Virus record (IMG/VR): IMGVR_UViG_3300025421_000060
Coordinates: 1-26,804 of that record
Strand: one strand, 5' to 3'
Source of the DNA: a virus
Length of the DNA stretch: 26,804 nt
Shown: positions 3,578-23,696 of the stretch, in pieces
How positions within the stretch are numbered: position 1 is the first letter of the stretch
How the letters are laid out: each line of letters starts with the position of its first letter
The notes under the pieces: model-generated
Told to the model about the DNA's origin: nothing
Databases searched by the model: none
Seen by the model: the letters and a program-made list of their open reading frames with translations, nothing else
Program-made: the position numbers and the translations under genes

Positions 3578-3825
3578 AACTCGCTATCCACAGTCACCGT
3601 CAGCGGTCGGTGCACTGCATACACACAGGCCGGGGAACAAGGAAACCCTGCCAATGCGATACCTGCCATGATAGCCCCTCCACAGGGACGCTGCAAGTCA
3701 GGTGGTCGAGATACCCCCCCCTGTATGGCACACGCACACACGCATACCCCCCCCATAGGATTTCACTCCACATAGACAAGTGCTATAAGACAGGGAACGC
3801 TATCTACGAAACGCTATAGCGAAGC

Positions 3826-3858
3826 CATGCACAAGTCATGCACAAGTTCTGCACAAGT
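3826..3858 (+). repeat. Three tandem 11-bp repeats
   Basis: CATGCACAAGT occurs at 3826 and 3837, followed at 3848 by TCTGCACAAGT and a degenerate fourth unit TCTGCAACAAC. One repeat per helical turn suits cooperative binding of a protein to one face of the DNA. Position between the terminase genes suggests a small-terminase (cosB-like) site, an origin iteron set or an operator. Confidence 0.6.
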
Positions 3859-3917
3859 TCTGCAACAACTTTGGATCGCATCACGCAGGCGTGGGTTGTC
3901 TCCCTAGGAGGTGGGAG

Positions 3918-4019
3918 GTGATTTCACAGCGCACCATCCACAGGATATTTCAAGCGACTTTTTGGATTTTGCCGCAGGGTGACCCCCTCACTACACAACG
4001 GCTCAGTTTCGGAGACTAA
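3918..4019 (+). CDS. Possible 33-residue ORF, doubtful
   Basis: GTG 3918 follows a strong AGGAGGT five bases upstream and opens 33 codons (MISQRTIHRIFQATFWILPQ...). The sequence has no motif and its codon use is unlike the neighbours. The only support is the ribosome binding site; it may equally be a purine-rich chance match in a regulatory region. Confidence 0.2.
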   Translation: MISQRTIHRIFQATFWILPQGDPLTTQRLSFGD

Positions 4020-4031
4020 ACTACGGTTGAG
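4015..4031 (-). promoter_or_regulatory. Degenerate leftward CTCAAC-N5-TTTAGT element
   Basis: Read on the - strand this is CTCAAC, CGTAG, TTTAGT: the same spacing as four other elements in the window, with one mismatch to TANAGT. It points into the non-coding gap, where no - strand gene is convincing, so it may drive an RNA, or may be an operator only. Confidence 0.3.
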
Positions 4032-4092
4032 TGTGGTGTAATCCCAACCCCACAAAACTTTGGCAGCCTATTTCGGGGACTATAGGGGGGTT

Positions 4093-4126
4093 GTTTCACA
4101 CGGGGAGCGTGAAACATTGGTAATCT
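4093..4126 (+). promoter_or_regulatory. Operator-like inverted repeat and -10 box of the methyltransferase gene
   Basis: GTTTCAC (4093-4099) and GTGAAAC (4109-4115) form a perfect 7-bp dyad with a 9-base centre. TAATCT (4121-4126) follows and lies exactly six bases before ATG 4133, the layout of an actinobacterial leaderless promoter. The dyad would cover the -35 region, so a bound protein could repress or activate. Its half-site matches the GTGAAAT word repeated throughout the window. Confidence 0.5.
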
Positions 4127-4132
4127 TCCCTC

Positions 4133-4711
4133 ATGGGACTTCCAAACTGGTTCGATCATGTTCGAGGAACCTTTGTTGAGCAACTGTCGCCCCTGTTTGG
4201 GGCAAAGGATTTCACGGCACTGCAAGTTGGGGCGTATGTCGGTCATGCGTCGGAGTGGTTGCTTGCTTTCCTGCTTACTGACGAGGGATCACGGCTCGAC
4301 GATGTAGATACTTGGCTTGGAAGCGATGAAGCGGAGCATCAAGCCCTTGATTTCACTGAGGTAGAGCGGGAATACCGAGAGCGATTGAAGCATTGGCTTG
4401 CCCTCGGGCAGGTGTCGGCGTTCAAGATGACCTCCGACGACTTCTTCCGTATGGCCTGCCCCGTTGAGGAATACGACTTCATCTACATTGACGGCGACCA
4501 TCGCTCGCATCAGGTTCTCCGAGATGCGATCAACGCTGACGCTGGACTGAAGCACGGTGGAATACTTGCCTTCGACGACTACTCGTGGTCGGCGGGAACC
4601 GGAGTAGATGCCGACCAACCCAAACTTGCTATTGACGCTTTTCTGGCGACTTTTGGAAGATACTACGAGGTCCTCCACGAGGGGCAGCAAGTCTGGCTGC
4701 GGAAGCACTGA
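4133..4711 (+). CDS. Class I SAM-dependent methyltransferase
   Basis: A 192-residue protein with the nucleotide-binding loop VGAYVGHAS (residues 32-40), an acidic residue at the end of strand beta-2 (VDTWLGS) and YDFIYIDGDHRSHQV (112-126) followed by GGILAFDDYSW, the signature of Methyltransf_24-type small-molecule or sugar methyltransferases. ATG 4133 has no Shine-Dalgarno; TAATCT six bases upstream suggests a leaderless transcript. It stands directly before the terminase genes but has no obvious role in packaging. The substrate is unknown; modification of a cell-surface sugar or a phage component is possible. Confidence 0.75.
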   Translation: MGLPNWFDHVRGTFVEQLSPLFGAKDFTALQVGAYVGHASEWLLAFLLTDEGSRLDDVDTWLGSDEAEHQALDFTEVEREYRERLKHWLALGQVSAFKMTSDDFFRMACPVEEYDFIYIDGDHRSHQVLRDAINADAGLKHGGILAFDDYSWSAGTGVDADQPKLAIDAFLATFGRYYEVLHEGQQVWLRKH

Positions 4712-4742
4712 TCCATTTCCTATAGGAAGGTAGAATAATGCC

Positions 4743-4844
4743 ATGATCGCAGCATTCCTCCTTGACCAATGGAAGCAGTATGCGGCGGCTTTTGGCGGCG
4801 GCGTGTTGTTCGTCTTACTGGTGTCCTTCTTCCGTAAGCCATGA
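4743..4844 (+). CDS. 33-residue membrane protein
   Basis: MIAAFLLDQWKQYAAAFGGG leads into a single hydrophobic helix (VLFVLLVSFF) with a short basic tail RKP. Its stop overlaps the terminase start as ATGA, so the two are coupled. AGGAAGGT lies upstream; TAGAAT also sits six bases before the ATG, so a leaderless start is possible. A preceding ATG at 4738 would give only two codons. Function unknown; it might mainly serve to couple translation into the terminase gene. Confidence 0.5.
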   Translation: MIAAFLLDQWKQYAAAFGGGVLFVLLVSFFRKP

Positions 4845-6577
4845 ACCCCGTCGTCCAACGCCTTCTCGGTGCCAACAAAGATCAACGTCGTGAAATCCTG
4901 ACCGGGCTGAAGCCCGAGGAACTCGCCATCGTGTTCCGAGAGTTGGAGGAGATCGAGCGCACCCCGCCCCGCCGGTGGTTCTGCGCCCGTGAAACCTGCA
5001 ACGGCAACCCCCATGTGGGATTTCACTGGTGCGAGCACCCCATTGACGGACAGCACACGCCGTTCTGCAAGCACGCTCGAACCCCGCAGCGACCACCCGC
5101 CGACGAGTCCAATACAAGCCCGTGGCTCACATGGTTTTTCAGCGGCGGTCGTGGGACGGGCAAGACACGAGCCGGAGCGGAGTGGGTTTTGGACTTGGTG
5201 TGGAACCAAGGCTACAAGCGCATCGCCCTCGTAGGCCGAACCCCTGCCGATGTTCGAGATGTGATGATCTACGGGGACAGCGGCATTATGAACTGCTCCC
5301 CGCCCAATGTGCGCCCACAGCACGAGCCGACGAAGCGGCGGCTGATCTGGCCGAACGGCGCACAGGCGTTCACCTACTCCGCTGCCGCCCCCTCGCAGTT
5401 GCGTGGTCCGCAGCACGACGCAGCGTGGTGTGTTTTGGAAGGCGAACTCGTGACGACCGCTCGGGGTGAAATCCCCATCGAACAAGTCGTTGTCGGCGAT
5501 CTCGTCGCCACCCGTGATGGCTGGAAGCAAGTCCTCGCCGCCACAATGACGAACCCTGACGCAGAGGTGCTGGAAATCCACACCGAGTCGGGCAATGTCC
5601 TGCGGTGCACCCCGAACCACCGTGTCTGGGTCAATGGGGACTGGGTGCTCGCCGAGAGCATCGTTCCAAGCGATAGAGTGCTGGCATGGATTTCACATAC
5701 GGACCCGCAGCGTGGATCGAGTGGGACGGAAGCCGCTGGCACCGTTCCAAAAGCGGCTACTACAAAGACCGGACAGGGAGCCTGCTTCATGTCGTCGTGT
5801 GGGAGCACTGCAACGGAAGGCGGCTCACGCCTGACGAGATCGTGCACCACATCGACCACAACCCCTCCAACAACACACCCGACAACCTGCGGGTCATGCT
5901 GCGAGCCGACCACATCAGGCTCCATATGGAGGAGCGTGGCTTCACGGCTCAGCCGGGTCTTGCCAAGATGGGTGCCGAAGCACTTTGGAAGAACCGCAAG
6001 CCACAGCCCGTCGTCTGCGATCAGTGTGGAACTCACTACGAAAGCGTCGGTATGCGAGCGAGGTTCTGCTCCAAAGCCTGTAGCAACGAGCACCTCCGTC
6101 TCCGCCGTATTTCAGAACGGGCAGAGAGGCGCAGTTTACGATCTCACGGTTGAGGGAGCACACGAGTTCTTCGCTGGCGGCATCCTCGTCCACAACTGCG
6201 ACGAGTTGGCAGCGTGGACCGATGCTCCAAAGGGCGACACCTTGGACACGAGTTGGAACAACCTCATGCTTGGACTTCGCCTCGGACAGATGCCTCGATG
6301 CCTCGTGACCACGACCCCGAAGCGGGTCAAGTTGGTTCGGCAAGTCATGGAGCGGCGCACCACGGTCGTCACGAACGGCTCGACCTACGAGAACCTCGAC
6401 AACCTCGCTCCGGCGTTCCGTGAGCAGGTGCTCGCTTCGTATGAGGGCACACGGATCGGCGAGCAGGAACTCAAAGGTGTCCTGCTGACCGATGTGGAAG
6501 GTGCGCTGTGGACGATGGAGATGATCGACAACGCCCGTGGTGAGTTTTGGAAGCCAGCCATGTTGGAACCGGCATGA
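4841..6577 (+). CDS. terL: Terminase large subunit, ATPase part, interrupted by an intein
   Basis: A 578-residue precursor that powers DNA packaging. Residues 101-109 (SGGRGTGKT) are the Walker A loop. The extein stops at AAW196, an intein fills residues 197-452, and the extein resumes with CDELAAW, so splicing would rebuild the Walker B motif around AWCDELAAW. Motif III-like CLVTTTPKR follows. Splicing leaves about 322 residues. An N-terminal Cys/His-rich stretch (C48, C53, C64, C76) could bind zinc, which is unusual. The ORF stops after the ATPase domain; the nuclease domain is the next gene, overlapping as ATGA. The start overlaps the 33-residue gene. Confidence 0.9.
   Translation: MNPVVQRLLGANKDQRREILTGLKPEELAIVFRELEEIERTPPRRWFCARETCNGNPHVGFHWCEHPIDGQHTPFCKHARTPQRPPADESNTSPWLTWFFSGGRGTGKTRAGAEWVLDLVWNQGYKRIALVGRTPADVRDVMIYGDSGIMNCSPPNVRPQHEPTKRRLIWPNGAQAFTYSAAAPSQLRGPQHDAAWCVLEGELVTTARGEIPIEQVVVGDLVATRDGWKQVLAATMTNPDAEVLEIHTESGNVLRCTPNHRVWVNGDWVLAESIVPSDRVLAWISHTDPQRGSSGTEAAGTVPKAATTKTGQGACFMSSCGSTATEGGSRLTRSCTTSTTTPPTTHPTTCGSCCEPTTSGSIWRSVASRLSRVLPRWVPKHFGRTASHSPSSAISVELTTKASVCERGSAPKPVATSTSVSAVFQNGQRGAVYDLTVEGAHEFFAGGILVHNCDELAAWTDAPKGDTLDTSWNNLMLGLRLGQMPRCLVTTTPKRVKLVRQVMERRTTVVTNGSTYENLDNLAPAFREQVLASYEGTRIGEQELKGVLLTDVEGALWTMEMIDNARGEFWKPAMLEPA
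5674..5679 (+). promoter_or_regulatory. Possible leaderless -10 box of the nested HNH gene
   Basis: TAGAGT lies exactly six bases before ATG 5686 of the nested endonuclease ORF, the same spacing seen at several other starts in the window. It lies inside intein coding sequence, so it may be chance, but no other translation signal for the ORF is obvious. Confidence 0.35.
5686..6153 (+). CDS. HNH homing endonuclease nested out of frame in the intein
   Basis: A 155-residue HNH endonuclease. The core is EIVHHIDHNPSNNTPDNLRV (residues 51-70), with DHIRLH after it, followed by a C-terminal zinc site CDQC...FCSKAC (Cys111, 114, 128, 132). The N-terminal WIEWDGSRWHR...GYY segment is common in phage HNH proteins. 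It lies wholly within the intein but in the -1 frame relative to the terminase, which stays open across it. Homing endonucleases in inteins are normally fused in frame. It has its own ATG with a TAGAGT six bases upstream. Expression is inferred. Confidence 0.8.
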   Translation: MDFTYGPAAWIEWDGSRWHRSKSGYYKDRTGSLLHVVVWEHCNGRRLTPDEIVHHIDHNPSNNTPDNLRVMLRADHIRLHMEERGFTAQPGLAKMGAEALWKNRKPQPVVCDQCGTHYESVGMRARFCSKACSNEHLRLRRISERAERRSLRSHG

Positions 6578-7203
6578 TTGAAATACACCCCGAGCAGTTC
6601 ACCAAAATCGTCATCGGTGTTGACCCTGCCATCACCTCGGGCGAGGACGCAGACGAAACGGGCATCATCGTTGTCGCCTCCGGTCCCCACCAGCCCTCGA
6701 CTTGTGTGATACCATCCTGCACCGCTCACGGCTACGTCCTGCAAGATGCCACGCCGCCCAAGTCCAACAAGAACTCCATTGACCGGTGGGTGAAGGTTGT
6801 CGTGGACCTCTACGACGAATGGAACGCCAACATCATCGTCGTTGAGAACAACGCCGGACGGGAACTTTTGGAAATGGCCTTGCGGACAGTGCGCTCCGAC
6901 TTGCCGATCCACCGCCCCAACGCCATCGAGAACAAGAAGGCACGAGCGGAACCTATCGTGGCTCTCTACGAGCAGGGGCGCATCCACCATGTAGGCGACC
7001 CGTTGCAGTTCGCCGAGTTGGAGGAACAGATGACGACATGGGTTCCAAAAGAGGGGAGCGGGCGAGGCTCGAAATCGCCTGACCGTGTGGACGCTCTCGT
7101 GTGGGCGTTGGCTGAACTCAACCTACAGGGCAAGAAGCCGAAGCAGGGAGTATCTGCCATCGCTCCCATCGGGCTGATGCAGAACAACGTCTGGTCGATT
7201 TGA
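6574..7203 (+). CDS. Terminase large subunit, nuclease part
   Basis: A 209-residue RNase H-like nuclease domain: IVIGVDPAITSGEDADETG (Asp17), NIIVVENNAGRELL (Glu91) and KSPDRVDALVWALAEL (Asp170/Asp173) supply the acidic metal-binding residues of terminase nucleases, which cut the concatemer during packaging. Normally this domain is fused to the ATPase. Here ATG 6574 overlaps the ATPase stop as ATGA, so the two would be made by coupled translation, or by a -1 shift. ATPase plus nuclease lengths add up to a normal terminase. A strong hairpin follows the gene. Confidence 0.85.
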   Translation: MIEIHPEQFTKIVIGVDPAITSGEDADETGIIVVASGPHQPSTCVIPSCTAHGYVLQDATPPKSNKNSIDRWVKVVVDLYDEWNANIIVVENNAGRELLEMALRTVRSDLPIHRPNAIENKKARAEPIVALYEQGRIHHVGDPLQFAELEEQMTTWVPKEGSGRGSKSPDRVDALVWALAELNLQGKKPKQGVSAIAPIGLMQNNVWSI

Positions 7204-22979: not shown

Positions 22980-23260
22980 TCGTCACGCAGAACACCTACA
23001 ACATCTGGCAGACCGTTCTCGCCCTCGTCCTGATTACCGGAGCGTTGGCACGATGGCTGAACAGCCGCTTGCCGAAAAAATCCGAGATGGACGACCTCAA
23101 AAAGGCACTCCGAGACGCTAAAGAGAGCAACTCGGCGGAGAACAGCCGCATCATGGCACTTGTCCGTGAGGTCAAGTTTGACCTGCGCCAGACGACGGCT
23201 CGTTTGGAACGCCACATCGACAGGGTGAAGGAAAATCCTGCGGAGATCGGCGATGAGTGA
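22967..23260 (+). CDS. Membrane protein with coiled coil, possible holin or spanin-like
   Basis: A 97-residue protein: one N-terminal membrane helix (IWQTVLALVLITGALARWL) followed by a charged coiled coil (MDDLKKALRDAKESN ... LERHIDRVKE). GTG 22967 overlaps the endolysin by 13 bases. Small membrane proteins just after the endolysin are often holins or regulators of lysis, so a lysis role is likely but unproven. The start is the only plausible one after the helix boundary. Confidence 0.65.
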   Translation: MAAVVVTQNTYNIWQTVLALVLITGALARWLNSRLPKKSEMDDLKKALRDAKESNSAENSRIMALVREVKFDLRQTTARLERHIDRVKENPAEIGDE

Positions 23261-23696
23261 CGACAAAGCCGTAGCCGCCCATGTCCAAAAGTTCACCCAT
23301 TCCTATCTCGTCGTCTATCCCGAGCACTCCGCACGGGAGGACGATCCGCACTACATCGACTTTCATCACTTGCAGCGAGAATGGAAAAAAGACCCCGAGA
23401 AGTGGCGTTGCGCCTACGGCGTAGAGAAGGGGGATTTTACTGAGTGCGACTTGGCGCACCCTTTGGAAATCCATCACGCCCACGTCGAGTTCGCCCTGCT
23501 CAACTCCATTGACCTCGCCCTGTTCGAGAAGCGGTATCCGGGCATCTCCGATCCCGACCACCTCGGCGCATGGGTTGAGAGCGCAGCGAACTGCATCGTC
23601 TATTGCGCTCGCCATCATCGGGGCCACGCCGGAGTTCACAGTGCATCGGCGGCTGACTGGGAAGCCTCGTTCGTTATCCGAAATCTCATTCAGTAG
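23253..23696 (+). CDS. HNH endonuclease-like protein
   Basis: A 147-residue protein with LEIHHAHVEFAL (71-82) and ESAANCIVYCARHHRGHAGVH (109-129), the H-H ... N ... H layout of the HNH nuclease fold, with Cys53, Cys65 and Cys113/118 possibly binding zinc. Stand-alone phage HNH proteins act as homing enzymes or with terminase in packaging. It overlaps the preceding gene by 8 bases and sits in the lysis region, so a mobile origin is plausible. Confidence 0.72.
   Translation: MSDDKAVAAHVQKFTHSYLVVYPEHSAREDDPHYIDFHHLQREWKKDPEKWRCAYGVEKGDFTECDLAHPLEIHHAHVEFALLNSIDLALFEKRYPGISDPDHLGAWVESAANCIVYCARHHRGHAGVHSASAADWEASFVIRNLIQ

What the first reader, a model, noticed from the sequence alone, without database searches (positions are those of the whole stretch)
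5686..6153. HNH endonuclease nested out of frame inside the terminase intein
The intein has intact splicing blocks, but its middle encodes an HNH endonuclease in the -1 frame, while the terminase frame runs on through the same DNA as a Ser/Thr-rich linker of about 145 residues. Usually the endonuclease is fused in frame. Here two proteins share about 470 bases, and the endonuclease would be made separately, perhaps from a leaderless start (TAGAGT six bases before its ATG). It could be a step in how free-standing HNH genes invade mini-inteins.
Basis: partly seen in the sequence, partly recalled or inferred. Interest (0 to 1): 0.78.

Follow-up and report, generated by a model that had tools for sequence, protein, structure and literature searches.

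The report
Endonuclease gene hidden inside an intein
A self-removing protein segment (intein) in a phage DNA-packaging enzyme carries a DNA-cutting-enzyme gene hidden in a second reading frame of the same DNA, and the same double-coded layout recurs, always in the same frame, in 77 different viral inteins, so it looks like a widespread and little-noticed way for such mobile elements to carry their cutting enzyme.

Summary
The terminase ATPase gene (4841-6577) holds an intein at Walker B (5429-6196; C1, TxxH, HN|C intact). An HNH gene (5686-6153) lies in its -1 frame while the intein frame stays open. A second near-identical contig repeats it with an identical intein. Searches of viral contigs, phage records, genomes and plasmids gave 77 distinct inteins (51 clusters) with an HNH in the same -1 frame. 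Sites are mostly TerL Walker B, also other TerL sites and one portal-like gene; a haloarchaeal plasmid has it too. Over the HNH, about 128-151 stops are expected in the intein frame; none occur. Substitutions concentrate at HNH third positions. The HNH frame is modelled with confidence and resembles I-HmuI; the same DNA read as intein is a disordered linker. Most HNH starts have a Shine-Dalgarno inside the intein. The window's branch instead has TANNNT exactly 6 nt before ATG, shared by five other genes of this phage. Best reading: an old, stable architecture in which an intein carries its homing endonuclease as an overlapping, separately translated gene. Homing itself is inferred. Closest precedent: ShiLan hidden HNH, without intein. 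In-frame HNH inteins also exist (cyanophage CL131).

The parts
4841..6577 (+). TerL ATPase-domain precursor ORF (N-extein, intein, C-extein)
   Evidence: Terminase_6N 1.8e-20; open frame
5429..6196 (+). Intein, inserted in Walker B: AAW^C...HN^CDELAAW
   Evidence: Intein_splicing 9.3e-12; TIGR01443 C-terminal 6.8e-7, over its cut-off; TIGR01445 N-terminal 7.4e-5, just under its cut-off; inteinless relatives such as L012; exact ends
5429..5698 (+). N-terminal splicing half (residues 1-90; C1, block B T61-x-x-H64)
   Evidence: AF2 pLDDT ~97, Hint fold, best PDB hit Mtu RecA intein
5699..6073 (+). Intein-frame linker (residues 91-215), Ser/Thr-rich, predicted disordered; same DNA as the HNH core
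   Evidence: AF2 pLDDT ~50, no secondary structure
6080..6196 (+). C-terminal splicing half (residues 218-256; block F, terminal HN)
   Evidence: AF2 pLDDT ~97
5674..5679 (+). TAGAGT: TANNNT -10-like element exactly 6 nt before the HNH ATG (putative leaderless promoter)
   Evidence: kept in the window's clade; 11/51 clusters against 3.4 expected; 5 of 21 other gene starts in this window
5686..6153 (+). Nested HNH endonuclease gene, -1 frame, 155 aa; H54/H55, N67, H76; C111/C114/C128/C132 zinc ribbon
   Evidence: HNH_3 2e-11; AF2 pLDDT 91.9; best PDB hit I-HmuI 3.4e-4; conserved columns
6574..7203 (+). TerL nuclease domain as a separate gene, ATGA overlap with the ATPase gene
   Evidence: Terminase_6C 1.4e-9; split kept in the window's TerL clade

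Best explanation
This is a mobile class-1-type intein whose homing endonuclease is not a domain of the intein but an overlapping gene in the -1 frame, placed where inteins normally hold their endonuclease domain. Ribosomes reading the terminase frame make a precursor in which the HNH DNA is read as a flexible, disordered linker; the Hint halves on either side fold, splice and restore TerL. The same DNA is also read from an internal start, giving a free HNH protein that would cut inteinless terminase alleles so that the intein is copied in. In most relatives the internal start uses a Shine-Dalgarno embedded in the intein's conserved Gly-Asp codons; in the window's branch it probably uses a leaderless transcript from an embedded TANNNT -10 element. 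Shown here by sequence: architecture, recurrence, selection on the HNH frame, avoidance of stops in the linker frame, start signals, predicted folds. Inferred: splicing, HNH production, cleavage and homing.
For: 77 distinct inteins in 51 clusters with HNH in the same -1 frame and the intein ORF open. Stops in intein frame: 128-151 expected, 0 observed; in the other alternative frame 593-603 expected, 539 observed. 15 independent pairs: HNH-core substitutions per codon 0.171/0.140/0.358 at HNH positions 1/2/3, linker always less conserved than HNH. HNH and intein distances congruent, Mantel r 0.67, 0 of 2000 permutations. HNH start at intein residue ~80-90 in most; an HNH-frame stop within 5 codons upstream in 29 of 77, which argues against upstream frameshifting. 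Internal SD stronger than synonymous recodings, p=5e-4. TANNNT-N6-ATG in the window's clade and in other genes of this phage. HNH frame pLDDT 91.9 and I-HmuI-like, linker ~50. Presence/absence: inteinless and mini-intein relatives lack this HNH in the records searched.
Against: No transcript, protein, splicing or cleavage data. The clusters share ancestry, so the joint probability is not a product of independent events. Seeds of the searches already had the -1 HNH or were mini-inteins. The window itself has no Shine-Dalgarno, and the TANNNT test was made after seeing the sequences. The HNH could serve packaging rather than homing. L163 has a nonsense codon in the HNH frame, so not every copy is active.
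Confidence: 0.82

Rival explanations
1. The HNH is a packaging accessory nuclease (as HNH proteins encoded beside terminases, e.g. HK97 gp74) that happens to be nested in the terminase intein and is not a homing enzyme.
For: Most host genes here are TerL; free HNH genes sit beside terminases in PAE1 and BP10.
Against: Also in nuclease-domain sites of TerL, in a portal-like gene (L172) and only where a full-length intein is present; mini-intein and inteinless relatives lack it in the records held; distances follow the intein; best structural match is the homing enzyme I-HmuI.
Confidence: 0.12
2. The HNH is made by -1 ribosomal frameshifting from the terminase frame, as an intein-N/HNH fusion.
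For: The HNH frame is the -1 frame in every case.
Against: A stop in the HNH frame lies within 5 codons before the start in 29 of 77, including the window (TAG four codons before the ATG); I saw no obvious slippery heptamer near the start (by eye, not scanned); independent start signals are present.
Confidence: 0.06
3. The -1 HNH is a dead relic or chance ORF; only the intein matters.
For: Some copies are decayed: L163 nonsense, remnants in L050 and L091.
Against: Third-position excess of substitutions in the HNH frame, near-invariant HNH and zinc residues, confident fold, conserved starts.
Confidence: 0.04
4. Sequencing or assembly indels disguise an in-frame fusion.
For: Metagenomic contigs; in-frame HNH inteins exist (CL131).
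Against: Same arrangement in 77 inteins including annotated phage records TJE1 and Highwayman, a bacterial genome, and in a haloarchaeal plasmid; identical intein in L008.
Confidence: 0.01

Closest known systems
ShiLan domain / hidden HNH in actinobacteriophage DNA methylases (PMC11855218; also Pacc40 gp60 there; Applejack, PMC12613952)
   Same: HNH endonuclease in an alternative frame of a phage gene, host frame without stops, no obvious RBS, leaderless start proposed, disordered host-frame product
   Different: ShiLan has no splicing domains and is thought to stay in the methylase; here the HNH lies inside an intein with intact splicing blocks, so the linker can be removed
HNH homing inteins with in-frame endonuclease (cyanophage CL131 dCTP deaminase, PMC6293099)
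   Same: Hint domain plus HNH_3 endonuclease between the splicing halves
   Different: there HNH is in the intein frame (checked); here it is a separate -1 gene
TerL inteins of mycobacteriophages (TerL1-e in Walker B; PMC5050341)
   Same: terminase host gene, Walker B insertion; TerL inteins shown there to splice
   Different: endonucleases shown there (BAKA, Bethlehem) are in-frame LAGLIDADG; no HNH frame overlap seen in the passages read
Fractured genes / split inteins with an endonuclease gene between the halves (Dassa et al. 2009, not held; PolB of phage MIJ3, PMC6892783)
   Same: intein plus separately translated endonuclease gene between the splicing halves
   Different: here the intein is one continuous ORF overlapping the endonuclease; Vibrio phage 1.245.O (L126) looks like a version where the linker frame has gained stops
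Free-standing phage HNH genes, with the group I intron enzyme I-HmuI as nearest solved fold
   Same: HNH_3 domain, zinc ribbon
   Different: nested, with the overlapping frame kept free of stops

Membership tests
Class 1 intein | N-terminal Cys/Ser nucleophile | tested here: met
   C1 invariant in alignment A9
Class 1 intein | Block B TxxH | tested here: met
   T61 and H64 invariant
Class 1 intein | Terminal HN and Cys/Ser/Thr at +1 | tested here: met
   H255 N256 invariant; Cys+1
Class 1 intein | Hint fold | tested here: met
   pLDDT ~97 in both halves, PDB hits to RecA/DnaB inteins, E 1.7e-7
Class 1 intein | Protein splicing | not testable with these tools
   needs expression
HNH endonuclease (HNH_3) | Profile match and H-N-H residues | tested here: met
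   PF13392 2e-11; H54 H55 H76 invariant, N67 nearly invariant
HNH endonuclease (HNH_3) | Fold | tested here: met
   I-HmuI 3.4e-4, probability 1.00
Homing element | Cleaves the element-free allele and is copied in | not testable with these tools
   only presence/absence seen, e.g. L011 with and L048 without the intein
In-frame HNH intein | Endonuclease in the intein frame | tested here: not met
   offset 2 (-1 frame)
ShiLan-type hidden HNH insertion | Out-of-frame HNH in a phage gene, host frame open | tested here: met
ShiLan-type hidden HNH insertion | No intein splicing domains | tested here: not met
   splicing blocks present
Split intein / fractured gene | Splicing halves encoded by two separate genes | tested here: not met
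   one continuous ORF
Leaderless gene | -10 element TANNNT about 6-7 nt before the start | tested here: met
   TAGAGT-N6-ATG
Leaderless gene | Transcript 5' end at the start codon | not testable with these tools
   needs 5'-end mapping

The most novel reading that the evidence does not exclude
Nested-HNH inteins are an ancient, widespread class in packaging genes of bacterial and archaeal tailed viruses, in which the intein's own codons hold the promoter or ribosome-binding site of its endonuclease. The -1 phase is kept because it is the only alternative phase in which an HNH gene can be read without stops, and loss of the open linker turns such inteins into split inteins (Vibrio phage 1.245.O arrangement).
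Probability: 0.5. Interest if true: 0.86.

Novelty: new variant of a known kind. Interest (0 to 1): 0.78.

Why it matters
Inteins are taught as in-frame composites: a splicing domain with an endonuclease domain grafted in. Here the two functions share DNA but not a protein. This shows how an endonuclease can ride in a splicing element without having to fold inside it, lets each partner die or persist separately (L163 lost HNH, L126 lost the linker), and offers a concrete route to split inteins. It also means that endonucleases are missed by annotation: in TJE1, Highwayman and the Halobacterium plasmid only the terminase/Hint protein is annotated at the match. A Ser/Thr-rich linker of the type TTSTTTPPTTHPTT is the out-of-phase reading of HHxDxNxxNN and can be used to find more.

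Tried and rejected
Shine-Dalgarno for the window's HNH: tested, weaker than recoded controls, rejected for this phage. Frameshift entry: rejected by upstream stops. Bacterial chromosomal inteins in up to 385 genomes of the class of Beijerinckia: no further HNH inteins in any frame among the loci fetched, so no in-frame control came from there; CL131 supplied it. An early stop-avoidance run gave false stops in three inteins because of a frame error in start picking; corrected. tblastn of a group A HNH and of one group B intein against phage records found nothing. L185 (offset 1) was set aside: its N half has stops and the HNH is in frame with the C half. Dassa 2009 and Dalgaard 1997 were not held. 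One phage query was a locus translation typed as letters and the plasmid query a hand-made consensus of group B HNH proteins; their hits served only as leads that were then checked in the records' own DNA.

Full report
1. What is there. ORF 4841-6577 encodes the TerL ATPase domain with an intein at Walker B (5429-6196, AAW^C...HN^CDELAAW). The HNH ORF 5686-6153 lies in the -1 frame. The nuclease domain of TerL is a separate gene, 6574-7203, joined by ATGA. A second IMG/VR contig (L008) has an identical intein; its few differences to the window lie at 3596-4754.

2. Relatives. The viral contig scans gave inteinless TerL (L012 and others), a mini-intein at the same site (L009, L010), and L011 with a divergent intein that also had a -1 HNH. 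Further scans gave many more. A pipeline of three profiles (intein N, intein C, HNH core) over all loci in six frames found 77 distinct full-length inteins with an HNH, all at offset 2 (-1) with the intein ORF open, in 51 clusters at 70% splicing-domain identity. Sites: mostly TerL Walker B, also other TerL families and TerL nuclease-domain sites, and a portal-like gene (L172:5852-6610, called from its sequence by eye). Annotated records among them: Tetrasphaera phage TJE1 (L125), Acinetobacter phage Highwayman (L120), Rhodobacteraceae phage LS06-2018-MD07 (L119), Beijerinckia mobilis (L103) and a Nitrospira MAG (L104). Outside the 77: Halobacterium sp. GSL-19 plasmid (L247). Control: cyanophage CL131 has the HNH in frame, and the same HNH profile detects it there.

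3. Both frames matter. By exact calculation over synonymous recodings, 128 (own codon usage) or 151 (locus usage) stops are expected in the intein frame over the HNH of 51 clusters and none occur; the other alternative frame has 539 against 603/593 expected. Median chance of an open frame is 0.059 for the used phase and 8e-7 for the other, which may explain why only -1 is seen. Four free-standing HNH genes have 12, 4, 3 and 6 stops in the corresponding frame. In 15 independent pairs the HNH core changes most at HNH third positions (0.171, 0.140, 0.358 per codon), which are second positions of the intein frame; linker identity is below HNH identity in every pair. So selection acts on the HNH protein sequence and on the openness, not the sequence, of the linker. 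The clusters are related, so the numbers are not independent events.

4. Structure. The intein model has two confident halves (residues 1-90 and 218-256, pLDDT ~97) matching solved inteins and a linker near 50 without secondary structure. The HNH model has mean pLDDT 91.9 and its only hit below 0.001 in the PDB is I-HmuI. H54, H55, H76, C111, C114, C128 are invariant and N67 nearly so.

5. Start signals. HNH starts at intein residue ~80-90 in most members, and in 29 of 77 an HNH-frame stop lies within five codons upstream. Upstream pairing with the anti-Shine-Dalgarno is stronger than in synonymous recodings (36 of 51, p=5e-4), often GGAGAT in the Gly-Asp codons of the intein. The window lacks this. 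In its branch (L089, L099, L138, L139, L146, L147, L164) TANNNT lies exactly six bases before the ATG; overall 11 of 51 clusters against 3.4 expected. In this window 12 of 1914 ATG/GTG have this spacing, and 5 of 21 other picked gene starts have it (P 1.8e-7); three of those five have family matches (metallophosphoesterase, exonuclease, endolysin). TANNNT as the -10 motif centred 7-12 bp upstream of transcription starts is established in Mycobacterium tuberculosis (PMC3898074). Gene starts were picked by eye from ORFs.

6. Evolution. HNH and splicing-domain distances agree (Mantel r 0.67, 0 of 2000) and trees share the main groups: the two have travelled together for long. L050 and L091 are short inteins with -1 HNH remnants. 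L163 has a nonsense codon in the HNH only. Vibrio phage 1.245.O has the -1 HNH but stops in the linker frame, leaving TerL-N, HNH and a Hint-C gene: a split-intein layout. This suggests, but does not prove, a path from nested to split.

7. What is known. The paper search found one kind of precedent, the out-of-frame HNH of ShiLan and Pacc40 methylases, without splicing domains (PMC11855218) and its mention in PMC12613952. No paper found describes an out-of-frame HNH in an intein, but most subscription journals and all bioRxiv preprints are outside the library.

8. Verdict. Real, recurrent and under selection; a new variant of HNH homing inteins. Splicing, expression and homing remain to be shown.

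Noticed in passing
window 6574-7203 and L009-L037: TerL is split into ATPase and nuclease genes with an ATGA overlap; the split is kept through the window's TerL clade, while L038, L042, L046, L089 and L099 have them fused.
   Followed up: partly
window starts 4133, 14632, 16392, 18009, 21738: TANNNT exactly 6 nt before the ATG in five of 21 picked gene starts: this phage probably uses leaderless transcripts widely.
   Followed up: partly
window 23253-23696: A second, free-standing HNH-like gene (phrog_8048 4.7e-5).
   Followed up: no
L126 (Vibrio phage 1.245.O, NC_055736), 1-2900: TerL with two inteins; the second looks split around a -1 HNH, with its C half annotated as a separate Hint protein.
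   Followed up: partly
L033:5001-7028: A relative with a different, larger intein at Walker A (GTGK^A...HN^TRAG) and none at Walker B.
   Followed up: no
L090/L092 against L093: Near relatives whose inteins share the first ~125 bp and last ~60 bp but differ between, one full-length and one mini: recombination inside the intein.
   Followed up: partly
L070, L082, L094, L142: Two nested-HNH inteins on the same contig, one at TerL Walker B and one in the TerL nuclease part.
   Followed up: no
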